A stretch of 64,000 nucleotides of DNA from Plasmodiophora brassicae (taxonomy: Eukaryota; Endomyxa; Phytomyxea; Plasmodiophorida; Plasmodiophoridae). The DNA lies in assembly GCA_039704465.1 (NCBI GenBank), contig JASFAU010000017.1:496001-560000 (forward strand). Direction: 5' to 3'. Positions 1,796-60,387 of this stretch are shown here, in pieces (position 1 is the first letter of the stretch; every line of letters starts with the position of its first letter). A program made the position numbers and the translations under genes. The notes under the pieces are model-generated. The model searched no databases. It worked only from the letters and a program-made list of their open reading frames with translations, and was not told the origin of the DNA.

Positions 1796-2019
1796 AAGCG
1801 GTACGCACGCGGTGCTGCTATCAAACCATCGAGGCACCCCCGAACGTATCGTAAAGGCCAGCTCTTGCATTGCCGTACCCCTGTTCTGCTGCAGGTGCTG
1901 GTCGCGTATTCCCGCGCTGTAACAAGGCACCGGTCGTCAATTTATTGTTCCGGTTGGCGGGTGTTCACGATACGGTATACGGGCTGTTGTCGTCGATCAC
2001 CGGGTGTGGAGCCGGGTGA

Positions 2020-3612
2020 TCAGTTTGTCGGCGCGGATGACGCCTTGGATGACGTCGCCGCTTGCGAAGGTGGTGCGGGCGCCACAGTACAACCCAGCGC
2101 TGTTGTGGTTGGCGAAGCGGTTGGAGTCGCAGCTGGTGCTGGCAATGCGGTCGTCGGCGTGATAGTCGTCGTCGCCGGGGTTGTTGATGGCGACGTTGCA
2201 GGCGGAACTGTACAACCGACAACTGTGGTTGTAAGCGGAGCGGCAGTTGTTGTTGGTGGGTGGACGGTACTCTGAGCGGCCGTGCTTGGGGCCACGCCGG
2301 CAGTAGTGGTGGACGGTGGCATTGCCGGCGTCGACGTTGCCTTTGCCTGGGCGCTGGTCGTTGGCGTCGCTGTGGATGTTGCCATCGCCGAGGTCGCTGC
2401 AGGCGCCGCCTTTGATGGCGCCACTGTGCAGCCCACAATTGGGGTTGTTGGAGGCGCGGTAGTTGGCGATGCTGGGGCAACAGTGCAACCAACACGGGAC
2501 GTTGCAGGTGGGGCGGGCGTTGCTTTCGGAACCGATTTGACGCTGAACGTCGTTGGAACGACTGTCGCTGAGGGCGATGTGGCGGGAGGCAATGTCGTCG
2601 CCGTCGCGGCAGTTGACGTCGGAGCCGTTGTCAGGGTCGGCGTGGTACTCGCTGTGGGCCCCCCAGCGACGATTGGCGTCGACATCGGGTTCACGTTGAG
2701 CGTCGTTGGCGCGACACGTGAAGGAGGAGCGGTCGTTGGCATCTTACGCACAGGTGTAGTCGTTGTCGATGGGGCCGCTGTTGGAGGAACGGTGCATCCC
2801 ACAACGGAGGCTGTTGGTGGGGCTATACTCGTCAACGAAACCGAATTTGCAGCAATCGTAGTTGGGGCCACAGTCGCAGCGGTTATTGATCGTGCGCTCG
2901 TTGGCATCTTTGTGGCCCCGGCTGTGGATGGCGTCGCTGCGGGCGGCACAGTACAACCGACGAGTGGAGCGGTCGTCAGCGCCGAACCAACAGGGGCGTT
3001 TGTTGGCGCGGCACTAGTTGCTGGCGACGAAGGTGTCGGTGCGGCAGTTGCCGGGGGTGCGGTTGTACGCGCCAATGAGGCAGTGGGCGCTGAAGCCACA
3101 GCATTGGTTGGCATGGTCGTCGTCGGCGTCGGCGTCCCCGCAGGCGCTGCTGTCGTCTCTGGCGCCGCTGTGCACCCCACGATCGACGTTGTTCCTGGGG
3201 CCGTACTCCATGGCGCGATCGAATTCACAGACGGCGCCGGTGCAGAGGTCGCAGCGTTGGCCGGTAGGGCACTCCTCGTCGTCACTGTCGTGGATGGTGC
3301 CGTCGTTGGCGCCGGCGGCACAGTGCACCCCAGAACGGCGGATGTGGGACGCAAGGTAGCCGGGCCCGCTGTCGACTTTACACTGCTCGTCGCGATGTCA
3401 TTCGCTGGTAGAGCGGCGGTGGTCAGCGCTAAAGTAGTGACTGGCAGGCGCAGGTTGCTCGTGGCGGTTGCTGGCACCGTTGCTGGCCCTGCAGTGCATC
3501 CGACGACAGCCGCTGACGTCGTCGTAGTATGCGGCGCGCCAGCAGCCGCCGCCGGGCGGTGCGCGCAAGCCACGAGGACGAAGGCAAGAAGAGTAACGAT
3601 TTTCGTAATCAT
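2020..3612 (-). CDS. Secreted mucin-like Thr/Pro/Ala protein with repeated VGCTV motif
   Basis: Intronless frame of 530 residues when started at MITKIVTLLAFVLVACA, which is a clean signal peptide; an in-frame Met 11 codons upstream is a weaker choice. The mature chain is almost wholly Thr, Ala, Pro and Ser, as in a densely O-glycosylated mucin. At irregular intervals of roughly 20-75 residues it is punctuated by V-x-G-C-T-V/A-x-P, about eleven times, giving one Cys per block. The regular single Cys suggests inter-chain or inter-block disulphides; that is inference. There is no TM segment or GPI-type hydrophobic tail in frame, so it is probably released or wall-associated, unless a 3' intron adds a tail. 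A Gly/Val-rich open frame on the plus strand (2282-3757) is its antisense. I recognise no family. Confidence 0.7.
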   Translation of the reverse strand: MITKIVTLLAFVLVACAHRPAAAAGAPHTTTTSAAVVGCTAGPATVPATATSNLRLPVTTLALTTAALPANDIATSSVKSTAGPATLRPTSAVLGCTVPPAPTTAPSTTVTTRSALPANAATSAPAPSVNSIAPWSTAPGTTSIVGCTAAPETTAAPAGTPTPTTTMPTNAVASAPTASLARTTAPPATAAPTPSSPATSAAPTNAPVGSALTTAPLVGCTVPPAATPSTAGATKMPTSARSITAATVAPTTIAANSVSLTSIAPPTASVVGCTVPPTAAPSTTTTPVRKMPTTAPPSRVAPTTLNVNPMSTPIVAGGPTASTTPTLTTAPTSTAATATTLPPATSPSATVVPTTFSVKSVPKATPAPPATSRVGCTVAPASPTTAPPTTPIVGCTVAPSKAAPAATSAMATSTATPTTSAQAKATSTPAMPPSTTTAGVAPSTAAQSTVHPPTTTAAPLTTTVVGCTVPPATSPSTTPATTTITPTTALPAPAATPTASPTTTALGCTVAPAPPSQAATSSKASSAPTN

Positions 3613-3743
3613 TTCCCAATACAGAATGACGCGGCATGGGCCCATGGCGGGTTGCTATCTAGAATACTGTTCTCGAAGGCAGAGGAACATGTCTCGAATG
3701 CCAGTCTCGACGGACAATCGAGAACCTATATGTTACCATGGTG

Positions 3744-4303
3744 CTATCGGCGAGTAGAACGTTGCACGACGTGTCCCTGTGCCTCGACGACCGCCGTATT
3801 CGTACGGTACCGCTTCGGAGGGACAACAACCCGAAACGGCATATCAGGCCGGGATTGGATCTTATCGATCATCGCGGAGCGGCCGAGCACGCTCTCAGCA
3901 GCGGGCATCATAGCATGCAGCACGGTTGCTGGCAGCGCCCACAGCGACGGTTCCTTCTGTCGGACGCGTTCGAGCAGCGCTAGGGCGTCGGACCCGGCGG
4001 GCAACTCGACATAGCTCGACGCGGGGGACCTCCTCAGCAATCGCCCGTCCGCGTCCGCCAGCGCATACCACACGCCCTGGTGTCGACCTACGCCAACGCA
4101 ACACCGGCGCAGGCCTCGTCGGCACGGGAACGTCAGCGCCCGGATCTGCCCACGACGCATCCGACAGGGGACGACCACCCCCACGGGCTCCGCCGCGAGC
4201 GCAGCGCACCACACCCGTCACCAGCCACCCTGTTCCGATCCGTCACCACCAGTTCACCATCGTCGTGGCTGCAGTTTCGAACATCGCCGCTCTGTTGGTG
4301 CCT
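3744..4303 (-). CDS. Hypothetical protein with a possible NHL-type beta-propeller segment
   Basis: The 3' part (3744 to about 4145) is open and ends VVQRSTRR-stop. Upstream, a segment reading GELVVTDRNR can be spliced through an 83-nt intron (donor GTGGCT at 4228, acceptor GGGCAG at 4146) to IRALTFPC, giving ELVVTDRNRIRAL. This resembles the L-x-V-x-D-x-x-N-x-R-I-R core of NHL repeats. The rest (GRHQGVWYALADADGRLL) could be a second blade. The start codon was not found and the gene may extend towards 4460. Function is unknown; the model is weak. Confidence 0.3.
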
Positions 4304-43299: not shown

Positions 43300-43449
43300 G
43301 AGCAGCCGCAGCAAATTAAACGGTCATGAAAACCGTGCCTGTCTGGAAGGGGTTCCACGTGGGAGCGGCCTCGAGACAGTGTGGAGATATTATCGGACGG
43401 AGGCTCCGGAAAGGGGGGCGCCGCGTCGTTCGGCCTGTCACAGTCCAAC

Positions 43450-45882
43450 ATGGCGAACTCGATCTGGCGTCGCAGCAAGAGCAACAATGAGACGTCCGAG
43501 GTTCGCCACAGCGCCGTGCCCGACGTCGCCGACCCGTCGTCGCGTTCGACCGTGATGACCAGCAGCCGCTTCGAGCATTTGACGCGCGGCGGGAACAACC
43601 CCGCCCTCAAGGGATCGTTCGTCTACCGGTTCCTCGTCATCATCATTCTGTTCATGATCACTGTCACCGCCGTCCTCCTCTCGTTCCTGATGCGATCCAC
43701 GACCGCAAACGTCACGCTGGAGCTGGGCGGCGACCCGGTGATCGCTCTCGGGCCCCTCGCCGAGATCCTGCAGGAGCCCAACGATCAGCTCTCCATCGAG
43801 GGGCGCTCGGGCACGAAGGCAGTTGTGAAGATGCCGATCGCGGGACGCGATCGCCTTGTCTCCCTGGTCGGGGCAGGGGATCCCCGACTGGCGAAGATCG
43901 CGCTCCGATCCGTGAACGACCATCGCGTGTGTGCCATCGGGTGGCGCGGGCCCCAGTGCGACCAGTGTGCGACCGAGTTCGGGTTCTCGGGCGCGCATTG
44001 CAACCGGTACGAGACGATGTTCAGCGCGCCGGACCCGTTCGCCCTGGCGCCGCCGACCCGCGCCTGCGACCCGAAGAGCACCGCGATGAAGTGCGTCAAG
44101 ACGGTCGGGTACGACGGCGTGCGCGTCGTGAACGTTCCCGAGACGGTCGGGTGCGTGGTGCGCATGGATACGGGGGCGATGAGCGCGACAACGCGCACGA
44201 TCGGGCATTCGCAAGGGGTCATCGTGTTCGACCAGGGCGTCGTGGGGAAGTCGCTGCCGTTCGTCGCGCTGTACGACGGCTACGACCAGGCCGCGGGGCA
44301 GTGCACCGGCACGTTCCAGCGGTACGAATGGTGCGTCAGCGAGACACCGTGCCAGAATTGCCCGACATGCGCCTCTGGCGGTACCTGCGAACCCGCACTC
44401 GCTGGTGACGGCACCTGCCTTCAATGTACAGCGCCCCTCCCTCGTTGTTGTTGCTGTTGCGTACGCACCTGCGGCTGAGCTCGCCTGTGCAGGTCCCTCT
44501 GGACACTTCGGATCCAACTGCGCACCCTGCCCTGCCGCCTGCGTCAGCGGGTGCGACGAAGGTACGCATCGCATCGGAGTGAGGGTGCGTGACAAACACG
44601 TTGAGCGGCGACGTTTGATGAAGGGTTCGCCGGCACCGGTGCTTGCCTGTGCGACGAGAGGACCATGGGTGACAATTGCGACGCCTGCCGACCCGGGCAC
44701 TTTGGACCGACCTGCGAACCCTGCCGGTGCACCTCGAAGGTGCGCGCAACGTGCACATGCAGTGCGACAGCGGCGGCCTGGTTCGCTTACGAGTGCAATT
44801 CGACAGGGCGTGTGTAACGACGGGAAGACGGGCACGGGGACCTGCATCTGCGCCCAGGTGCGGCAGCGTACTGGGGCACGCGCGCGTACCGCGGCTGACG
44901 TGGGGTTGGGCAGAACTTCGAGGGGCCGACATGCGCGGCGTGTGCGGCCGGGTTCACGGGGCCGAACTGCGACGCGTGCCTGCCGGATCATTTCGGGCCG
45001 AACTGTGTGCCGTGCCAGTGCGGCCCGCTGGGCACGTGCCAGGTCGCACCCGACGGCACGCAGGCCCGGTGCGTCTGCAAGGATAACGTGGTCGGTGAGC
45101 GGTGCGACCAGTGCGCTAAAGGGTGGTACGGGCCGACCTGCACAGGTCGGTGCCAGTGCAGTCGCGCCAGTTTCTGCGTCGACGGTAGTATAGGCACGCG
45201 CCCCGCACCTCACGCACCGCCGGCTGACGTTGCCCGCAGGAATAACCGGGACTGGAATCTGCACGCCAACTGGATGCCCACCTGGGTTCGCGAACCCGCC
45301 CGGCTGCCGATCGTGCGCCGTCGGCTTTACAGGTGCGTGGCACGCACCGGACGCAGTGGCCACCCCGCGCGCGCACCTGACAGTTTGGGCCCAGGTCCTC
45401 GGTGCCAGAGTTGTGTGACCAACTTCTTCGGGCCGTCGTGCTTGCCGTGCCAGTGTGCGAACGGCGGCATTTGTTCGGATGGGAGGGCGGGGTCGGGTGC
45501 GTGTGCGTGCCCGAGCCAGTTCACAGGGCCGACCTGCAGCGCCTGTGCCAAGGGCTGGTACGGCCCGTCGTGCATCGGGCAGTGCCACTGCGGCCCAGAC
45601 GAGGTCTGCGACGACGGGCTGTCGGGCAAGGGGGCGTGTACGAAGGCGTCCCTGCCGGCCAAGCTGTGCTCGCCCACCTGCCAGTTGCACGGCGTCTGCG
45701 ACAACGGGGTCTGCATCGGGTGCCAGGCGGGCAGGTTCGGCAGCGAGTGCGACCGCGAATGCACACAGACGTGCATGCAATTCGGGACGTGCTCCACCGG
45801 CCCGACCGGCGACGGTTCGTGCTCTGGGTGCGCACCCGGGCGCAGCGGGGCCCAATGCGAACTCCTATCCGGGCCCATATAG
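43450..45882 (+). CDS. Type II membrane protein with laminin-type EGF repeats
   Basis: At least five exons. The first (to about 44426) gives an 80-residue cytoplasmic N-terminus, one TM segment (FLVIIILFMITVTAVLLSFLM, about residues 62-82) and an extracellular stretch of about 130 residues. Then come many CxxC-type modules: GWRGPQCDQCATEFGFSGAHC, SGHFGSNCAPCPAAC, RPGHFGPTCEPC, PDHFGPNCVPCQCG, KGWYGPTCTGRCQC, PSQFTGPTCSACAKGWYGPSC and a final CSGCAPGRSGAQCELL. The F/Y-G-P-x-C spacing is that of laminin/MEGF EGF-like repeats. Introns of about 55-70 nt interrupt the repeats. A cell-surface adhesive or receptor role is inferred. The large minus-strand open frame here is antisense. It converges on LRR-lectin gene A, 73 bp apart. 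Confidence 0.75.
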
Positions 45883-45955: not shown

Positions 45956-48284
45956 TTACAGGGTCTGCCACTCGCTGTCCGACTGCGAGGTCATCGCGCC
46001 TTGGTTGAATTTGTCGCGCGCCTCGACGCGACGCGGACGCCTTGCGAAGGCACTGGCGCGCACCTGCGGCTGGTGTGGGACGTCCACCTCGTCGAACGGG
46101 ATTTGCATGACCGATAACGGGGGCGCTGTGGCATGCAGTGCGACAGCTTGTGTGGCGGTTGGTGGCGCTCTGAGGCTGTGACCCCAAATGACAACGACGA
46201 GCAGGCAGCAGGCGAGGATGGCGGTTAGCACGATGAACAGCACCGTCGCCGTCGTATGATCGTTCATCCAGCCAGACATGTCCTGGGATTGCGAGCTCGA
46301 CGCGGTCGGGCTGGCCGTGACCCTCGGTCGAATACGAGCAGTGTTGCCAGGTTGGGCCCCGGGCGACGAACTCGGGGACGCATTCGATGTTCTCAGCAGT
46401 GCAGGGCTTGGACGGGTCGTTGCCCGCCGTCGAGTGCTCTGCAGACCCGTCCCCGATAGAAGCGCGAATCTTCGCGTTGTCAGCGACGACGATGTCGACG
46501 CCTTGTGTTGCATCGATGGCCGGATGCGCGGCGATGTATGTGCTATGGGCAACGTCTTCGCCGACGTCGTCGTCGTCGTTCGGAATCGTTTCTTAGACGT
46601 CGAGGTTCGTTTCGTAGAGGTCGCGGTTCGTTTCGTAGAGGTCGCGGTTCGTTTCGTAGAGGTCGCGGTTCGTTTCGTAGAGGTCGACGTTCTCGGTACA
46701 GCGGTGCAGGTAACGGCAACGGAGAGCTGCTTTGATTCTGAGCAGGGGTTCGTTCCGAAGGTGGCCACGGATGCGGTTAGCAAACAGGACGTCCGGTTGA
46801 CGCAGGCTTGCGTCACGACCTTGACGCTGCTCTGGGCGTGACAGTACTGGCTAATGGCATAGACGCCGGACATCCCAGACGGCCAGCCGAACGACGCGAA
46901 GGAAACGCTGGAGATCCTGGCCGGCGCCTGGCAGTATAGCGAGAGGTACATGTTCTCATTTGCAGTACCGAACGTCGCGCTGGCGTCGTCTAAGACAAGC
47001 ACGGTTCATATAATTATACCGCTCAATGGGTGATGCCTGCGTCGTACCGGGAGCACACAGGTTGTTGTCGTACACAACGATGGGTGACGGGGGCTTCTTC
47101 GGCCAGCATACGATCTGGTCCGGTGGCGACGATGTCCTGCGGGACGGCACAGGCGCACGATGTCAACGCGGGCAGACAGAGTTTGGGCGCAATGCATTAC
47201 CGGATGTCAGTCAGCATGGATTGATTGCGAAAGATACCATAGGGGAGGCGCATCAGCATGGGACATGCATGAAACGCTCTATGCATACGAATCGTACTCA
47301 GGCACGTCGGATCAGAAAGGCGTACAGAGGGCTGACGAACAAGTGTACGAGGGACGTGCAGTGGTCGAAAAGCCCAGCCGGGATCGACGACAATGGTGGG
47401 TTGGTGTCCATGTACAACCACTGCAAGAGCGATTGGGCCTGGAAGGCGCCCGGTTCGATGGTCTGTAGTGAATTCGTCCCAATGTTTCTGTGGCAACCAA
47501 TTAGGCTGTTTGACGGCCCTGTGCGCAAGCGAACCCGGAACGGACATGTACGTGAGTTGACTTAGTGCTGCCAAGGCGGTCGACGGTATCGTCGTCAGGC
47601 GGTTAACGCCCAGGTTCCTGCATGCGGCGTTTCCGGATAAGGGACCAAACGCATCGATCGCCTCGAGAGGGCTAGCATACAAGTTTGTCAGGGACCTGCA
47701 GAAGTTAAGAAGGCCATATGGAAGCGCGGCTAGCAGGTTATTGCTCAGCACCAGCGACTGCAGATTGGTCAGGTCGGCGAATGCGGTCGGTGAGCTGGGC
47801 AGCGCCGTGATAACGTTGGCGTCCAACGTCCTATGCATGTGGACGTCAGCAAACCGAGGCTCGTCTCCTTGACGTAGGCCAACGCACAGCGAGATTAGGG
47901 CCTTCATCCCCGAGAAGGTATCATTAGCAATGCCGGACAGCTTGCAGGAGGTGATTGCCCTGGCACAGCACTATTATTCGTAGCCGGTTGGACATGTTCC
48001 GAACAGAGCGGCTGATTACACGGATGTGATCGACGACCGGGATGTCAGGTCGAACCACGCGCTCGACAATAATCCACCAACGGAGGGCTGGTTGCTGAGT
48101 GATCTGCCCTCCGATTCAGTGTGGGGACACCCCTGCACGTTTGGCGCGAGGCCTACATGACTGTGCTGCTGGAGCAGGACCCAGAGTACCAGTCGCACAG
48201 GCACCCGTTGGCCTGCTTGCAGTACGTCGCCGACACCCGCAGGGCCAGCAACGCATGGAGCAGAACGGCGATGGCCGTTTGCAT
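45956..48284 (-). CDS. LRR / SUEL-lectin receptor A
   Basis: Multi-exon gene. Exon 1 encodes a signal peptide (MQTAIAVLLHALLALRVSA) and the Cys motif YCKQANGCLCDWYSGSC. LRR exons of about 70-150 nt follow (AITSCKLSGIANDTFSGMKAL; TLDANVITALP, FADLTNLQSLVLSNNLLAALP; NRLTTIPSTALAALSQLTYM; NSLQTIEPGAFQAQSLL). Last comes one long 3' exon. It holds a galactose/rhamnose-binding SUEL-type domain (NMYLSLYCQAP, SVSFASFGWPSG, VVTQACVNRTSCLLTA, FGTNPCSESKQLSVAVTC), a Thr/Ser stalk with four STKRTAT repeats, one TM segment (TATVLFIVLTAILACCLLVVVIW) and a tail with RRPRRVEARDKFNQGAM. It would be a single-pass surface receptor for glycans. Exon edges between 47000 and 48280 were not all fixed. First of three tandem paralogues. 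Confidence 0.75.
46610..46690. repeat. 21-bp tandem repeat in receptor A stalk
   Basis: About four units of TTTCGTAGAGGTCGCGGTTCG. On the minus strand they encode the repeated STKRTAT of the stalk. Receptors B and C lack this array, so it expanded after duplication. Confidence 0.9.
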
Positions 48285-48473
48285 AAGGTTCGGGTGAGCT
48301 GATCGATCCACAGCGAAGTCCCAAACAGTGACGGACAGCATAGACGGGGGGAGACCGACAACGTACGCGAACCCCTATCCCGACCGGTGGAATCTGGCTA
48401 GACCCAAACATGCACTGCAAGTGGTCGCCCACATCAACAACTTTAACAACGCTTCGTGGACGTGCAGCGGCGA

Positions 48474-50734
48474 CTACAAGGCTTCCGGTTCACTCTCCGA
48501 CGTCGTCGACATCGTCGTCATGGCACCCTGGTTGAATTTGTCGCGCGCCTCGGCCCGACGTGGGCGCGTGCGTTGACTGGGACGCGAGGTCGTAACGTCG
48601 CTTGACCCTGTCGGTGTGGGATACTGCAAATGCTGGAACATGGCGCCCGCGGGCAGCAAGACGTGCTGACTCGGTAATGGGTCCGTACCGGTGCTGAACG
48701 GGACGACGCGTTGTGCTAACGGGGACCCGGGCGTCGCAGGGTTCCTCCAGGCGAAAGTCGAAACGACGACGACAATGCAGAGGATGCCGAGGCCGACGAC
48801 GGCTAGTACGAACACCAGGACGATCGCGTAGTCGGTTAGCCAGTGACTGACGTCGTTCGGTGACGAAGACGGATGGTCTGTTGCAGACGGACGTCGAAGG
48901 ACGATGGTCGTATGCGCTGCTGATGACGTCGTTGACCTGGGTAACCACGACCTGGGTAACGACGCCTTAGAACTGTGCCGGGCTGCCGACGTGCCGACAG
49001 GCAGATCCAGGTTCTTCCTCGGCGTCGTATTCCTGGAACTGAATGTCCTCAGCGGCGGCGACTTCCTGGAGCCAAGTGTCCTCGTCGACGACGCCTTCTT
49101 GGTCGATGTGGACACACGCCGGGTCTTCGTCGAGGGCAACTTGGCAACGGTGGTGCAGTTGATGGCGACGGAAAGTTGCTTGGTGGTACCGGGACAGGGG
49201 TCCGAGCCGAATGTGGAAGCGGACGCCGTTAGGAGACACGACGTCTTGTTGACGCAGGCTTGCCTGACAACAGACACGCTGTTGATGGAATTGCACGATC
49301 CGAGCGTGTACACGCCGGATTGTCCCGACGGGGTGCCGTAGGACGCGAAGATGATGCGGGATATGATGGCGGGCGCTTTGCAGAAGAGCGACAAGTACGC
49401 GCCATCCGCCGCGGTGCCGAAGGTTCCACTGGAATCATCTGCCCATGCAGTTTGTCAGTGAATGCCTGTAAGGTTGTTCTAGGGCTCGTTGCATAGCAGA
49501 CCGGGCGAGCAGAGATTCGTGCTGTACCCAGAGATCGATGACGGAGGTTTCATTGGCCAGCACACGAGTGGGTTGCTGGACCTGAGTGTACAAAGCCGTA
49601 AGTGGACAAGAACATGCGGGAAACTGGCGGTCAAGTTTACCAAACATCAATCTGCGTCAGTTTGATCGCGTTGCGGAAGATGCCATTCGGGAGGCGCATC
49701 AGTTTAGCATCGAGGTATAACGACCTGCACGACACCATCTCATTAGCAGCATCGTCAAAGGTAACCCAGCTGAAGCGCTGACGAACACGTATGCGAGAGA
49801 TGTGCATTGGTCTAAGAGCCCGTCAGGAATGGATGGCAGGGCCGGATTCGAGTCTAGAAATAGAGTTTGCAGGAGCGACTGGGACTGAAATGCCCCAGGC
49901 TCGATGTAGGTGATGGAGTTGGTTCCAAGGTTTCTGCACCGAACGTTGACATGGGCATTAGGATATGCTTGGACGAGCGAGTAACGGACAGCCACGTGAG
50001 TTGATTTAAATTGGCCACAGTCGTCGTGGTTATCGTCGTCAGTTTGTTGACGCCCAGGTTTCTGCATCCACTCTGTAGTTGACCCCGGAAAAGGGCACAT
50101 ATCGACTTACAGGGATTTCAGTGAGGTACACGGGGTAAACACGCCGGCAGGCAATGTCGACAGCGAATTTCCAACCAGGACGAGGGTTTGCAGGTGGGTC
50201 AAGTCGGCGAACAGCGTAGAAGCCGACAGCGTTGTTATTTGATTGCTGTGCAAATCCCTATGGATTGTAACCGGCCTTAGTCCTGTCAAAGCTCATTTTT
50301 GACATGCCGTCGTTCGATACAGGTAGGTTAGCGAACTCATTCCTGCAAACGTGCCGTTCGCAACGCCAGGCAGCTGACACGAGGTAATCGATCTGAGTAT
50401 CCGTTTAGAACAAGGTTAGTTTAGGGGGAATTGGCTGGGCATTACACAGAGGTGATCGACGACCGTGACGTTAGGTCAAACCAAGCGCTGGTCAAAATTC
50501 CAGTCCCCATTTTACCGTTGAGCGAGCTGTTTCCGGTATCAGAACGATGGATCATCCACACTGACTGACCACATACATGGATGTACTGCTGATGCATGAT
50601 CCCTGGTACCAGTCGCAAATGCACCCGTTGGCCTGCTTGCAAGTCTGCGCTAATGCGGGCGCCACCGTCAACGCGATGGAGATAACGACGGCCCCACGCA
50701 TGAGAGCGAGGCTTGAACGCAAGCGCTGTCCCAT
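48474..50734 (-). CDS. LRR / SUEL-lectin receptor B
   Basis: Same architecture as receptor A. Signal peptide (GAVVISIALTVAPALA) and TCKQANGCICDWYQGSC. Then the first LRR-like exon (TSAWFDLTSRSSITSV), further LRR exons (LHSNQITTLSASTLFADLTH, LVLVGNSLSTLPAGVF; NSITYIEPGAFQSQSLLQ, NPALPSIPDGLLDQCTSL) and one long 3' exon from about 49394. That exon has the lectin domain (YLSLFCKAPAII-type start, SYGTPSGQSGVYTLGSCNS, VVRQACVNKTSCLLTA, FGSDPCPGTTKQLSVAINC), a Ser/Thr stalk, a TM segment (AIVLVFVLAVVGLGILCIVVVV) and the tail RPRRAEARDKFNQGAMTTM. The start is MGQRL at 50734 or the later MRGAV at 50701. It begins only 190 bp upstream of receptor A. Confidence 0.75.
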
Positions 50735-51214
50735 AATCACGGACAGCATTTGGCGGCCGACAAGTTTTAACACTATAGTACCCTTTCGCCGACCCCTGGT
50801 TTAGACGACCACCGAGTCAGTATCAGTGCTTCGTCACAATATTCTGTAGACCGGACCGCCCAACTACCGGTAGGCCACGAGAGCAGCTGCTCCCGTGGCC
50901 TAGTTGGGCGGTCCAGTCTACAATTCTTTCGAGATGGGATTATATCGATCTCAGCGCCTTTCTACATAGGAGGCAACCCAGCTTTTCGGCTGCTCTGACC
51001 AGAGTGCCATAGTGACAGGCACGTCCGGCACTCTGGCTGACCAGGTCACGAGCCTCTGCCCGCCACGTCTGCAACCGATTGCTGGTTTGGGCGGATTGCA
51101 TTTACAACGGTCGAACTGCCCTGGGTAGATGATCGTGGGCGTATCCACAGGCCGACACAGACAGATCGCGGCTGACGGGGCCAGGGATCTTTACTGATGT
51201 TTTGACGACCATGA
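50735..51214. other. Intergenic region between receptors B and C
   Basis: Contains the palindrome at 50845-50922 and otherwise no supported gene. Confidence 0.5.
50845..50922. repeat. Near-perfect palindrome, 22-bp outer arms plus inner hairpin
   Basis: The outer arms TGTAGACCGGACCGCCCAAC and GTTGGGCGGTCCAGTCTACA differ at one position. An inner pair, TAGGCCACGAG and CTCCCGTGGCCTA, extends the stem around AGCAGCTGCT. It lies in the spacer between two receptor genes. Confidence 0.85.
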
Positions 51215-53508
51215 TCACGAGACGTCCGGTTCACTCTGTGATGTCGTTGACATCGTCGTCATGGCACCCTGGTTGAATTTGTCGCGAGCCTCGGTACGAC
51301 GCGGGCGCGAGCGGTGACTGGGCCGCGATGCAATAGCGTCGCTTCGGGGTATTGGCGTCGACGTAGGATACTGTAAACGCTGGTACATGGCGCCCGCGGG
51401 CAGCAAGACTTGCTGACCCGATAATGGACCCGTACCGGGGCCGAACGGGACGACGGGTAGTGCTAATGGGGAACCAGGCGTCGGAGAGTTCCTCCTCCTG
51501 ACACAAAAGGAAACGACGACGACAATGCAAAGGAAGCTGACGCCGGCGGCGGCTAATACGAACACCAGGAGAGTCGCATGATCGGTAACCCAGTGACTTA
51601 GGTCCTGCGGCGACGAAGACGGACCGTCTGTTTTCGTATGACCTTCTGACGACGTCGTCGATCTGGGTAACGACGTCATAGACCTGTTTCTGGTTGTCGA
51701 CGCGCGATAAGATGTGGACATCGCTGGTTTCTTGGTCGACAATGTCATGCCGACGCCGACAGGCAAACTGGACGCTCTCACTGTTGTCGACATCCTGGAA
51801 CTGAATGTCCTCAGCGGCGGCGACTTCCTGGAGCCAGGTGTCCTCGTTGACGACGCCTTCTTGGTCGATGTGGACACACGCCGGGTCTTCGTCGAGGGCA
51901 ACTTGGCAACGGTGGTGCAGTTGATGGCAACTGAAAGGTGCTTGGTGGTACCGGGACAGGGGTCCGAGCCGAACGTGGAAGCGGACGCCGTTAGTAGGCA
52001 CGACGTCTTGCTGGTGCAAGCCTGTCTGACAACAGACACGCTGTGGTTGGAATTGCACGATCCGAGCGTGTACACGCCGGACTGTCCCGACGGGTTGCCG
52101 AACGACGCGAACAGCACGCTGGATATGATGGCGGGCGCTTTGCAGAATAGCGACAAGTACGCGCCTTCCACTGCGGTGCCGAACGTTCCACTGGAATCAT
52201 CTGCCCGTGCAACATACCAGTCGTTGAGAATACAGCGCTCTATGGAGCTGATCGAAACTTGCCAGGGGCACACAGGTTCGTACTGTATCCGGTGATCTTT
52301 GACGGAGGTTGTTTCGGCCAGCACACAATCTGCTGTGGCGCCCTGTATGTCCTGCAGGTACGCACTCGTCAGAGTTGTGCTTTACCCAGCATTCATCACG
52401 CGTGAGCAGTGTGGGCATACGTGACATCGGTCAGCATTGTCGCGTTGCGGAAAATGCCATACGGCAGGCGCATTAGCATGGGGCAGGCGTGAATCGCCCT
52501 GTACGCATACCATTAGCAACACGTCGCCCACAAAGGGAGTCATGAGACCGCTGACGACGAACAGGTGTCCGAGCGATGTGCTGTAATCGAAGAGACCATC
52601 AGGCAGGGATGCCAGTGGCGGGTTGGTGTCCAAGAACAGCGTCTGCAGGAGGGACTGCGCCCGGAGCGCGCCAGGCTCGATGAACTGGATCGAGTTCGTT
52701 CCGAAATTTCTGCGACGGGAACTTCGCATCAGGTTGCTGGCCAGCACAGATGCCCGACGAACATGGTAATGAGCTGGCTGAGGGTCGACAGGGCGTTCGT
52801 CGGTATGGATGTCAACTGATTAATGCCGAAGTTACTGCGATATGACCACGAGTCAGCACCGTTCACGTGTGCCAATGGTCGGCTGCGGGGAATTACAAAT
52901 CCGTCAGCGACGTACACGGGGCAAACAGACGTTCTGGCAGGGAGGTGAGCGAGTTCGTGCCCATGTCCACCGATTGCAGATTGGTCAGGCTCGCGAACGC
53001 CGCAGGTGAGCCTGGCAGCGAAGTGATCACGTTACCCTCCAGCGACCTATTCACCATGATCGTCGGCATGGGGCGCACGGCTAGGTTAGGGGGTTTGGTA
53101 CAGAGTGGTTAGCGCCGACATGCCCACAAACGTGCCGTTGTCGATACCAGTTAACTGACAGTACGTAATTGACCTGACGAAGGACAACAGCAGGCCGGGT
53201 CACAGTCCCAGCAACCCGAGACGCAGGTTGGAGGTTACACATAAGTGATAGACGACCGGGACCACAGGTTGAACCAAGCGCTGGTCAACATTCCACCCGC
53301 GGATGACTGGGCGTTTAGCGAACTGACATCCGTCGTTGATGAGCCACGACGTCGGTGTGACGATGAGATGCAGGACGTACATGTAGGTGCTGCTGGTGCA
53401 TGCGGTCGGATACCAATCACAGATGCACCCGTTCGCCTGCTTGCAATACGTTGCGAATCCTGGACAAAGCAATAACGCGACGTAAAGGGCGATGAGAACC
53501 TCACCCAT
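51215..53508 (-). CDS. LRR / SUEL-lectin receptor C
   Basis: Third paralogue. Exon 1 is MGEVLIALYVALLLCPGFA plus TYCKQANGCICDWYPTAC. It splices at GTACGT to SLNAQSSAGGMLTSAWFNLW, an LRR-like segment. More LRR exons follow (VITSLPGSPAAFASLTNLQS, TNSLTSLPERLFAPCTSL; QLTSIPTNALSTLSQLITM; NSIQFIEPGALRAQSLLQ, NPPLASLPDGLFDYSTSL). The long last exon (to 51215) has the SUEL-type domain (YLSLFCKAPAIISSVLFASF, VVRQACTSKTSCLLTA, FGSDPCPGTTKHLSVAINC), a Ser/Thr stalk, a TM segment (LLVFVLAAAGVSFLCIVVVVSF) and the tail RPRRTEARDKFNQGAMTTM. It is closest to B across the lectin and tail. Part of its stalk, TM and tail is copied into the chimeric ORF at 59.8-60.4 kb. Confidence 0.75.
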
Positions 53509-53800: not shown

Positions 53801-56800
53801 TCAGGACCGTCCAACGGTGACCCACATTCGATTGACACGCTCAGTGAACTCGGCCAGCTCCTTGGCGCGCATGGACGATGTGCCGGGCGACACGCGGACG
53901 ATCCCGAGGAAGTGGTCCAGCGTGAACTCGCTCTGGGAGCACGCGACGACGTGAGCGCGGCGCTCATCCGTCAAGCGGGCACCTTACGCTGTGCGACTGG
54001 ATCCACGCCAGCAGCTCGTTCGGCTGCAGGTAGTACGCCTTGATATAGTCGTCAACGCGTGCCCCGCCCGGGATGGGCCAGACGCCCGCGACGTCCCTGA
54101 GCCCGCGCTGCAGGTACCCAGAATCTACGAGGCGGCACCGATGAGCACACACACACACACAGAGAATACGGTGCCGTGCCTCACCCAGGGACATGGCCGC
54201 CCGCCCCTCCGTCGTGCACTTCTTCACCGAGCTGAGCGCATCGACAACCAGGTCCATCGTGATGCGCAGGCAGTTGCCGAGGAACACCTGGGAAACGGCC
54301 GCCTGGATCTCGTTCGACGACGTCATCTTCGACAGCCGCGCATGCAGCTGCTGGAACGACTTCTTGATCCTGTCGACGTACGTGTTGCACGTCTCCTTCA
54401 GCTCGGAGATGTCCCACTTGCAGGTGCCGATTAGGCCCAGGACGGGCCGCAGCGTCTCCGTCATCAGCCGGGTCGCTGCGCGCGCGTTTCGATCAGCGAA
54501 ACCGTTGGCACACACGGGCAGCAGCTGAGGGCGACGGGGGTAGTACCGAGGAACCAGTAGACGGCCTGCTCCAGGTCAGCGCAGAGGCCGGCCGTGTACG
54601 CGGCCGCATCCGGGATCTCAGCGTTCTTCGTCGTGACGTACTGGGCCGTGATCGGGACAACCCTGCAGGAAACGCGTTGTCAGACGTACGACGGCAAGCG
54701 ACGAGTTCGACGGACCACTGGTATGCTCCAGCGATGCGCTTGAGCGACTCGATGGCCAGGTACCGGACGGGCAGACCGAACAGGTCCTCGATGCCGTCGA
54801 GTTGCACGCCAGCCTGCAGCCTGGCGATCTGTGGCCCGCTGGGCGACGACGTGGTCGCTGGCTGCTGCTGCTGCTGCTGTTGCTGCGCTATGAACCGCAC
54901 CGCCCCAGCAGCGAACTTTCGTTCGCCGATGCCGGACACGATGTGGTTCAGCACCGTGCACAGCCGAGGGAACCGTTTCAGGAAGGCCCCGTACGCCGGG
55001 TGCGTCTCGAGGAAGCGCGCGTACTCGGGGCTGAACAACGAGAACACGCCGAGCAGGTACACGTGGAAAAGGTCGACCGACAGGGACGCTACGTGAGTGG
55101 CCACGCTCGGCAGGCATCGCTCCAGCTGCAGGTACCGCCCCAGCGTTTGCATCGGCAACTGGACAACGAGACGCGGTGAGCACACGACAACGACCCGGAC
55201 GATGAAGGCGAACGCCCTGACCAGTGCGGATGACGTCGTGATCCACGGGACGGCAGACGCCGGCCGGAAGACGGCACTGACAGGGGCCGTCGCCGCTGAC
55301 GGCGACGGCCCCGGCGACGACGACGCCAGACGAAGAATGTCGACGCCGTCGGCGAACTGCTGGAAGAGCCTGTCGTGATCGGGCCTGGCGGCATGGTCGG
55401 CGAGCTCCATCTGGACGGCCTCGTGTCGCAGCTCCTTGATGTCCGAGTACCAGAAGTCGGCCGCCAGCGGGACGCGTTGCCACGACTCGCTGTCGATCGC
55501 CAGGACGAGCCGCTCGACGCTCTGGGCGCGCACACCGGCGACGTCAGGGGGGTGCACACATGTCGTCGTCGTCGCCGCCTACCTGGACGTGGAACGAGGT
55601 GGCAAACTGCATGCACTTGTCGGCCAGGGCGGGGCGCAGGACGCTGGAGACGATGCCGCTGAACTGCTCGCCGACGCGCATCAGGACCTCGCTCCTCGTG
55701 CTCATCGACTCCATCTGCCGTTGCGAGTCAGCCCCCCACAATGGCCCGGGTTGGGACCAGCGACTTGACCTCGGCAATGTTGTTCTCCAGCGCGGTCGCC
55801 GTCGTCGACCGCAGCAGCTGGACGAGGCGGTGCTGGATGCGTTCCCAGAGCGCGACCCGGCCCTGGCCGAGGCCATGGGCGAACGCACGGCCGGCATCGC
55901 AGGTCGGCGGGTCCGCTGCGAATTGCTCGTCGAGGACCTGCCGCACGACAAAGTACGTGTGCATGGCGACGAGCGCGGCGTGCAGGGCGGCCTCGTAGCA
56001 GGCCGAGAACTGGGCGGGGCGCACCGACGCGCAGATGTCCAGGAACGTCAACGTCGACGTCGTCGTGTCGGCCCCGGCGACCGCTTGGCACTGGCGCTGG
56101 ACGGCGGCGTGCATGGCGGCGTCGGTCGCGTGGGCAAACGCCTCCGAGACGCGGTTCGCGAACCCCAGCTGGACCTCCATCAGGTAGAACGCCTGCGCCA
56201 TGCCCTGCAGCGCCTTCGTGTCGAGCGCGTGCGCCCCCGACGCCGTTGCCAGCAGCAGCGCGTCCAGTGACGCCTGCAGGTGGCGCTCGAACCGCGCGTA
56301 CCCGTCGGCGAACGTCTGCAGGACGGCGCTCGCCGCCTGGATGCCCTCGACGTCCCGTTTCAGCTGGTCGGCACGCGCCAGCTGCTCCAGGGCGGACGCG
56401 AACGATAGCGAGCGCATGGCGTCCTGGAGCGCGGCGTCGGCGGCGACGAGGTCCAGCAGCGCCTTGCACTTCTGTCGAACGGCCTACGGGGGACGTTCAG
56501 ACGGTCGGGGGAGGGCGCCAGCAACGCAGACGACATCGTACGTTGATCCGGATCAGCTTGCGATGCAGGGCGACGGTTCGGAACGAGTGCGTCACCAGGT
56601 TGCGCTGGGCGTTCTGGAGCACGCGCCGGGTGCCCGACACGAGCTCGACCGAGCCGGCCAGGTCGTTCTCGATCGCCTGGATGCCCTCCATGATGTTCAC
56701 TGCGAACAACAACGACCCACGTTCAATGGTCGTGCGCGCGCGCCCACGTGTCTCTCGCGAAACGGTACCGAATGCGTTGTAGTTGGCGAAGATCTGGGCG

Positions 56801-59790: not shown

Positions 59791-60387
59791 TCAGCGCCGA
59801 TTCGCCGTCGACGCCGTCGCGAGCAGGGAGATGTTGGACAGGGCAGCGTCGATTTGACGCATGACACGTTGGTACATGGCCGCGGGCGACAATACTTGCT
59901 GACTGGGTAATGGACCCGTACCGGGGCTGAACGGGATGACGTGAGGTGCTAATGAGGAACCAGGACGCGGGAAGGCCATCCTCCTGGCACAAACGGAAAC
60001 GACGACGACAATGCAAAGGACGCCGGCGCCGACGGCGGCTAATACGAACAGCCTCAGAAGAGTCGCAAGATCGGTAACCCAGTGCCTTAGGTCCTGCGGT
60101 GACGAAGACAAAGCGTCTGTTACAGGAGCCGTATGACTGACGCCGTCGACATCGATGGTTCCTTGGTCGACAATCTCATGCCGACGCCGACAGGCGAACT
60201 GGATGCTCTCACCTTTGTCGACATCCTGGCAGGTGCCCTTGCACTTCGCGATCCGCTTATCGAACAGGAACACGACCTGGTCCAGCCGTCGCGGGAACCC
60301 ATCGATCAGGAAGTTGCAAGCGCCCACCTCGGCGCGCGACGTCAGTTGAAGCCGACAACCACCGCCATCGTCGGCTTCGATGGCCAC
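59791..60387 (-). pseudogene. Chimeric ORF: adenylate-kinase fragment fused to receptor TM/tail fragment
   Basis: Open frame of 198 residues with three sources. Residues about 20-50 (GACNFLIDGFPRRLDQ, DKRIAKC; plus-strand 60243-60325) are nearly identical to the second AK domain near 18845-18930. Residues about 52-75 derive from the receptor-C stalk DNA but read in a different frame (ESIQFACRRRHEIVDQ). Residues about 92-170 return to the receptor frame (QDLRHWVTDLATLL, VLCIVVVVSV, PGTGPLPSQQVLSPAAMYQR). The tail then diverges. No promoter or start logic is evident, so I call it a pseudogene mosaic, though it could encode a TM protein. Confidence 0.75.

What the first reader, a model, noticed from the sequence alone, without database searches (positions are those of the whole stretch)
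45956..53508. Tandem array of LRR + SUEL-type lectin transmembrane receptors
Seen: three consecutive minus-strand genes share signal peptide, YCKQANGC-CDWY N-terminus, LRRs, a SUEL/galactose-lectin domain, Ser/Thr stalk, one TM segment and cytoplasmic tail. Known: both domains are common separately in surface recognition proteins. I do not know a described family that joins them in this order. The tandem copies suggest an expanding glycan-recognition system (feeding, mating or defence).
Basis: partly seen in the sequence, partly recalled or inferred. Interest (0 to 1): 0.85.

Follow-up and report, generated by a model that had tools for sequence, protein, structure and literature searches.

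The report
Clubroot parasite LRR-lectin surface proteins
Three neighbouring genes of the clubroot parasite encode membrane proteins that carry two recognition domains, apparently outside the cell, and their inner tail is shared with many unrelated membrane proteins of the same parasite, which suggests one common address or anchor.

Summary
Three intact tandem minus-strand genes (45956-53508) have nine exons each with matching intron positions and phases. Each encodes a signal-peptide-like start (by eye), Cys-rich cap, LRRs, one SUEL lectin domain, a Ser/Thr/Pro/Arg stalk, one TM helix and a tail. The g3 model equals an NCBI Plasmodiophora brassicae protein (19 extra N-terminal residues there), so the organism is the clubroot parasite. 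No in-frame Met precedes the lectin in its exon, so LRR and lectin exons very probably form one gene. Six loci have this architecture; one is interrupted. No other named organism showed LRR plus SUEL, but one of the two searches missed three known relatives, so absence is weak evidence. The bigger surprise is the tail, RRxxARDKF(N/G/D)QGAxTxxxS: it ends at least 22 proteins with unrelated ectodomains (LRR-SUEL, SUEL, LRR, double GH18, CAP, glucoamylase-like, NHL; some called by position or by eye). It is conserved as protein (codon position 1/2/3 entropy 0.15/0.14/1.04 bits in 21 tails). No paper in the library holds DKFNQGA. I read the genes as glycan-binding surface adhesins or receptors delivered or anchored through this shared tail. 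Function is inferred. New variant of a known kind.

The parts
51215..53508 (-). gene g1, LRR-SUEL type I membrane protein, 601 aa; exons 53381-53508, 53239-53322, 53102-53173, 52897-53046, 52763-52834, 52563-52709, 52421-52498, 52263-52351, 51215-52200
   Evidence: hand-made splice model (intron 8 GC-AG; P0001 joins differently there); Pfam
48474..50701 (-). gene g2, LRR-SUEL type I membrane protein, 590 aa; exons 50577-50701, 50446-50526, 50321-50392, 50111-50257, 49990-50061, 49787-49933, 49641-49724, 49502-49581, 48474-49438
   Evidence: hand-made splice model; Pfam
45956..48284 (-). gene g3, LRR-SUEL type I membrane protein, 617 aa; exons 48157-48284, 48020-48103, 47888-47959, 47681-47830, 47546-47617, 47341-47487, 47201-47278, 47048-47136, 45956-46989
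   Evidence: splice model; identical to NCBI P0002 apart from 19 further N-terminal residues there; Pfam
51917..52150 (-). SUEL lectin domain of g1
   Evidence: PF02140 65.4 bits (C17:547917-548150)
49155..49388 (-). SUEL lectin domain of g2
   Evidence: PF02140 66.1 bits
46706..46939 (-). SUEL lectin domain of g3
   Evidence: PF02140 51.8 bits
51509..51571 (-). transmembrane segment of g1 (approximate)
   Evidence: hydropathy; position read
48761..48824 (-). transmembrane segment of g2 (approximate)
   Evidence: hydropathy; position read
46169..46270 (-). transmembrane helix of g3 (P0002 residues 533-566, approximate)
   Evidence: AlphaFold2 helix, pLDDT 85 in residues 541-560; hydropathy
51264..51283 (-). 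tail motif DKFNQGA of g1
48523..48542 (-). tail motif DKFNQGA of g2
45996..46015 (-). tail motif DKFNQGA of g3
46586..46686 (-). 21-bp tandem repeat (4.8 copies) coding part of the stalk of g3
59794..60123 (-). relic related to the stalk/TM/tail part of g1, frames broken, motif not seen
   Evidence: (58% identity over residues 14-123 of the 152-aa query)

Best explanation
The three genes encode type I single-pass surface proteins of Plasmodiophora brassicae: signal-peptide-like start, a CxxxNxCxCDWY cap, LRR solenoid, one SUEL lectin domain, a flexible stalk rich in Ser/Thr/Pro/Arg, a TM helix, then a tail of about 75-100 residues with no Pfam signalling domain, ending in RRxxARDKFNQGAMT. Shown: gene structure, domains, purifying selection on LRR and lectin, and the tail motif shared with unrelated ectodomains. 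Inferred: the LRR and lectin face outward and bind glycan or glycoprotein ligands (own coat, host wall or host cell), and the tail lies in the cytosol and docks a common partner (sorting adaptor or cortical anchor) that brings a set of membrane proteins to the same place. Inferred for origin: LRR exons were joined through a phase-1 intron to a ready-made lectin-stalk-TM-tail exon, because a SUEL gene on contig C8 carries those four parts in one open frame.
For: Splice models and Pfam; g3 equals NCBI P0002; no in-frame Met before the lectin in 3 of 3; dN 0.23-0.34 against dS 1.3-1.8 in LRRs, lectin dN 0.08-0.34 against dS 0.21-1.10; six LRR-SUEL loci. Tail: 34 DNA matches at up to 2 mismatches (14 exact, 3 with one, 17 with two) against 3 for the pattern read backwards; all 34 read, 22 are tails, 12 are not; D, K, Q, A, T invariant in the 21 aligned (the 22nd, on C19, has N for Q); TM 57-152 residues before the motif in 19 of 21 tested, the other two frames being too short to judge, the 22nd not tested; codon entropy at positions 1/2/3 0.15/0.14/1.04 bits over 21 tails and 0.08/0.08/0.97 over eight representatives of seven ectodomain classes. 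Ectodomains. SUEL, stalk, TM and tail in one frame on C8.
Against: No binding, expression or localisation data. g3 has NPC where g1 and g2 have DPC, and none has YGR. The lectin was modelled poorly (pLDDT under 40, four-row alignment). dN is about equal to dS in the TM part, and high in the stalk and outer tail (g1-g3, g2-g3), so purifying selection is shown for LRR and lectin and, more weakly, for the motif end (dN/dS 0.27-0.44) only. The two C19 members of the LRR-SUEL family lack the motif, so the tail is not essential to the family. The tail-region protein search returned only P0001 out of 6 candidates and missed P0002, so the spread of the motif beyond this genome is unknown. Four ectodomains were called LRR by eye only, two CAP by eye, and several are linked to the tail by position, not by a confirmed transcript.
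Confidence: 0.55

Rival explanations
1. The tail is a signalling tail: the ectodomains are sensors, and the Ser/Thr-rich end is phosphorylated to recruit one downstream signalling protein.
For: 3-8 Ser/Thr within 12 residues after the motif in 19 of 19 tails examined, acidic residues in 18 of 19; recognition-type ectodomains.
Against: The same tail ends likely enzymes (double GH18, glucoamylase-like) and CAP proteins, which need delivery or anchoring rather than signalling; no signalling domain in the Pfam scan of g1-g3.
Confidence: 0.2
2. The tail is a retrieval or endocytic signal that keeps these proteins in an internal (for example lysosomal or secretory-granule) membrane; the ectodomains act in a lumen, e.g. 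in digestion of engulfed host material.
For: Mix of likely hydrolases and lectins; a short motif 10-20 residues from the C-terminus in 21 of 21 tails.
Against: Known endocytic signals are not what is conserved: YxxPhi in 4 of 19, [DE]xxxL[LI] in 0 of 19, FxNPxY in 0 of 19.
Confidence: 0.2
3. LRR and lectin are separate genes; the fusion is a gene-model artefact.
For: No transcript data here; splice sites were hand-picked and g1 intron 8 needs a GC donor, where NCBI model P0001 joins differently.
Against: No Met before the lectin in its exon in 3 of 3; matching phases in three tandem genes; NCBI models P0001-P0003 carry both domains.
Confidence: 0.03

Closest known systems
SUEL/rhamnose-binding lectins (RBLs) and the SUEL domain of plant beta-galactosidase (PDB 5iaz, beta-galactosidase 1; that it is a plant protein is recalled)
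   Same: SUEL_Lectin Pfam domain over cut-off; best solved relative of g2 is 5iaz (6.9e-17), then an L-rhamnose-binding lectin, CSL3 and latrophilins
   Different: Joined to LRRs and to a TM/tail; no YGR motif (FGN, YGT, FGW), g3 lacks DPC
Latrophilins / adhesion GPCR L1-L3 (SUEL domain at the N-terminus of a membrane receptor)
   Same: SUEL domain on a membrane protein (sequence matches); partners include FLRT, an LRR protein (recalled; the abstract of PMC6978801 in the listing names latrophilins and FLRTs together)
   Different: One TM here, no olfactomedin, GAIN/GPS or 7TM match; LRR in the same chain
Polycystin-1 (LRR plus lectin in one membrane protein; recalled)
   Same: LRR followed by a lectin domain in one chain
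   Different: Polycystin has a C-type lectin, PKD repeats and many TM segments (recalled); none found here
Apicomplexan TRAP/MIC family (recalled): different adhesive ectodomains on one type of cytosolic tail that engages the motor
   Same: Different ectodomains share one conserved short tail
   Different: Different motif; no conserved sub-terminal Trp (Trp after the motif in 6 of 21 tails)
Acanthamoeba SUEL proteins, about half joined to EGF domains (PMC4053784, passages read)
   Same: Protist SUEL multidomain proteins proposed as recognition receptors
   Different: EGF, not LRR; 11 proteins in that genome
Galactose-binding lectins and LRR secretome of P. brassicae (PMC4471660, passages read)
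   Same: That paper reports enrichment of galactose-binding lectins in plasmodiophorids and of LRR domains in the P. brassicae secretome
   Different: The passages read do not describe the LRR-SUEL join or the tail; its secretome, like that of PMC12503489 (passages read), left out proteins with TM segments

Membership tests
SUEL_Lectin (PF02140) | Profile score above curated cut-off 31.4 bits | tested here: met
   60.0, 60.7, 46.3 bits
SUEL_Lectin (PF02140) | YGR motif of animal RBLs (recalled) | tested here: not met
   FGN, YGT, FGW in g1, g2, g3; 5iaz has FGT
SUEL_Lectin (PF02140) | DPC motif (recalled) | tested here: inconclusive
   met in g1 and g2, NPC in g3
SUEL_Lectin (PF02140) | Binds rhamnose/galactose | not testable with these tools
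   needs glycan array or calorimetry
LRR_8 / LRR_5 proteins | Profile score above cut-off | tested here: met
   LRR_8 74.7-97.4 bits, LRR_5 65.5-67.6 bits; pLDDT 74-90 in each ten-residue block from 81 to 210 of P0002
Polycystin-1 | PKD repeats, C-type lectin, multiple TM segments, PLAT (recalled) | tested here: not met
   none in the Pfam scan at E<=1; besides the N-terminal helix one long hydrophobic helix near the C-terminus
Latrophilin | Olfactomedin, GAIN/GPS and 7TM after SUEL (recalled) | tested here: not met
   none
TRAP/MIC-type tails | Conserved sub-terminal Trp in an acidic tail (recalled) | tested here: not met
   Trp after the motif in 6 of 21 tails, position not fixed
Clathrin-adaptor signals YxxPhi, [DE]xxxL[LI], FxNPxY | One of the three motifs conserved in the tail | tested here: not met
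   4, 0 and 0 of 19 tails; motifs as in the abstract of PMC2882754 (search listing)
Conserved-tail set of P. brassicae (proposed here) | DKFxQGAxT-type motif 57-152 residues after a TM helix and 10-20 residues before the C-terminus | tested here: met
   g1, g2, g3 and C10:149814; not met by the two C19 LRR-SUEL relatives

The most novel reading that the evidence does not exclude
P. brassicae uses one cytosolic address, the ARDKFNQGA tail, to deliver or anchor a large set of its membrane-bound surface proteins; exon joining lets different ectodomains (LRR, lectin, chitinase-like, CAP, NHL, glucoamylase-like) be displayed through it, and the LRR-SUEL receptors are one product. The tail may be specific to this lineage.
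Probability: 0.45. Interest if true: 0.75.

Novelty: new variant of a known kind. Interest (0 to 1): 0.6.

Why it matters
Little is known of the surface of this obligate plant parasite, and the two secretome surveys whose passages I read left out membrane-anchored proteins. A conserved tail gives a sequence handle for listing such proteins in any phytomyxid genome, a bait for finding the cytosolic partner, and a direct test of whether one sorting or anchoring route serves unrelated ectodomains. The LRR-SUEL join adds a combination that my searches did not find outside this species.

Tried and rejected
Separate-gene artefact: held very unlikely. A recent expansion: rejected for the LRR parts (dS 1.3-1.8). 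PDZ ligand: the last four residues differ between most tails. Known endocytic motifs as the conserved element: rejected. Trp-based motor tail: rejected. Structure: AlphaFold2 with four rows gave a good LRR and TM but no usable lectin, so no fold search was run. Rfam (gathering threshold) and tRNA scans of the window were empty. Twelve of the 34 pattern matches were dropped as not being tails; one of them, C12:589692 (ARVTFNQGAGT, beside the CAP cluster), may be a degenerate relic. Two further tail-like ends are divergent and not counted: C8:510102 lacks the DKF-QGA core, C12:591420 reads AREEFGRGAT.
Full report
What is there. The window is bases 496001-560000 of contig C17 of a 25.3 Mb, 21-contig genome. 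Its four best protein relatives are named Plasmodiophora brassicae, the clubroot parasite. In 45956-53508 I modelled three minus-strand genes, choosing splice sites by hand from frame and agreement between the copies: 23 of 24 introns are GT-AG, one is GC-AG. All three genes have nine exons, seven phase-2 introns and a final phase-1 intron at matching positions; introns are 49-69 bp. The g3 model is exactly the last 617 residues of the 636-residue NCBI protein P0002. Each protein has a hydrophobic, signal-peptide-like N-terminus (by eye), a C-rich cap (CKQANGC-CDWY), LRRs and one SUEL lectin domain, the domains above Pfam cut-offs, then a Ser/Thr/Pro/Arg stalk, one TM segment and a tail. AlphaFold2 on P0002 gave confident LRRs and TM helix, low confidence elsewhere and no usable lectin model, with only four rows.

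One gene or two. No RNA data were available. The exon that holds the lectin has no in-frame Met before the lectin domain in any of the three genes, phases match across the junction, and NCBI models P0001-P0003 carry both domains. I treat the fusion as near certain. The exact g1 junction is less sure: my GC-AG intron keeps STNLCAP, which g2 nearly shares (STNLCSP), while P0001 joins without it.

Age and exchange. Nei-Gojobori dS between the LRR parts is 1.3-1.8 (near saturation) with dN 0.23-0.34, so these are old copies under purifying selection. In the lectin part g1 and g2 differ by dS 0.21 only, against 1.0-1.1 to g3, which points to gene conversion. In the TM part dN is about as high as dS, so constraint is shown for LRR and lectin and, more weakly, for the motif end. 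P0001 (PBRA_008417, another assembly) is g1-like up to residue 190 and g2-like from residue 206, with six sites like neither; it may be a recombinant allele or an assembly merger, and I cannot tell which.

Family size. Six loci in the genome have LRR plus SUEL: the three here, one on C10 whose LRR part is interrupted by about 2 kb, and a tandem pair on C19 with a related cap. SUEL domains are common here: 47 matches, all over the cut-off, in line with the enrichment of galactose-binding lectins reported in PMC4471660 (passages read).

The tail. A search with the last 152 residues of g1 found 18 places at E <= 10, several in proteins without SUEL or LRR. A degenerate DNA pattern for DK(F/Y)NQGA gave 34 matches (14 exact, 3 with one and 17 with two mismatches) against 3 for the same pattern read backwards. 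I read all 34: 22 are protein ends with the motif, 12 are not, though one of the 12 (C12:589692) may be a degenerate relic. In the 21 aligned, D, K, Q, A and T are invariant, and R, A, F and G nearly so; the 22nd (C19:623407, AVDKFNNGART) has N for Q. A strong hydrophobic segment lies 57-152 residues before the motif in 19 of the 21; the other two open frames (C8) are too short to show it, and the 22nd was not tested. The motif ends 10-20 residues before the C-terminus in the 21. Third codon positions vary (1.04 bits over 21; 0.97 over eight representatives of seven classes) while first and second hardly do (0.15 and 0.14; 0.08 and 0.08), so the protein is conserved, not recently copied DNA.

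What the tail is attached to. Of 22: four LRR-SUEL; four SUEL (Pfam shown in the same frame for one on C8; by position for two on C8 and one on C19); two double-GH18 proteins; five in a CAP cluster on C12 (Pfam CAP match upstream for three; by eye for two); one glucoamylase-like with a sub-threshold ricin-type match; one after NHL repeats, by position; five LRR without SUEL (one over the Pfam cut-off; four by eye). Two LRR genes on C12 have a similar cap, LCSWYGKGCSGTTM and LCTWYGKGCPGSGTTM. On C8 the lectin, stalk, TM and tail lie in one open frame, as in exon 9 here, which suggests that the LRR-SUEL genes arose when LRR exons were joined to such an exon. That last step is inference.

How it may work. 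Shown: domains, one TM, conserved tail motif. From established knowledge of the families: LRR and SUEL domains bind proteins and sugars outside cells. Inferred: outward display, glycan binding, and a common cytosolic partner for the tail that sorts or anchors these proteins. Against the glycan part: no YGR in any copy, NPC instead of DPC in g3; the closest solved relative is a beta-galactosidase SUEL domain. Against a universal rule: the two C19 LRR-SUEL proteins have a TM-like segment but no such motif.

Novelty. Four of 25 relatives have SUEL and all four are P. brassicae; three of these also carry LRR domains. In the lectin-region search 1 of 4 hits (P0001) had LRRs; the others were a Saprolegnia SUEL protein, an Avena sativa protein with beta-galactosidase-type domains and an unnamed protein. 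That search failed to return P0002-P0004, so its silence about other species is weak. The listings of the paper searches showed no description of an LRR-SUEL join in Plasmodiophora, and no paper of the library holds the letters DKFNQGA. In the passages read, PMC4471660 and PMC12503489 removed proteins with TM segments from their secretomes, which may explain why this set was passed over.

Verdict. The function is untested. Interest 0.6.

Noticed in passing
window 50835-50935 (between g1 and g2): A strong palindrome (DNA fold z-score -12.4) that belongs to a dispersed repeat: 85 matches listed, counting both strands, on many contigs, sometimes in pairs about 250 bp apart (e.g. C13:993171/993423, C18:397411/397658), like ends of a small inverted-repeat element.
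   Followed up: partly
L087 (C10:144500-150500), about 1959-3975: The C10 LRR-SUEL copy is interrupted in its LRR part by about 2 kb; its lectin-to-tail exon is still open. Described only.
   Followed up: partly
window 59794-60123: Relic of the stalk/TM/tail part of an LRR-SUEL gene, frames broken, about 6 kb beyond g1.
   Followed up: partly
window 43330-45882, + strand: Convergent neighbour with laminin-type EGF domains (PF00053, in 44899-45882) and a hydrophobic stretch in the open frame at 43330-44478, perhaps a type II membrane protein.
   Followed up: no
window 53964-54575, - strand: Exon with a Syndetin C-terminal domain (PF10474, 106.9 bits): an ordinary trafficking gene upstream of g1.
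   Followed up: no
C1:906211-908540 in G000: Seven SUEL matches, most spaced exactly 350 bp apart and three with equal scores (47 bits): looks like recent tandem amplification.
   Followed up: no
P0003: An LRR-SUEL protein is labelled '(mitochondrion)' in its NCBI name, probably a labelling error.
   Followed up: no
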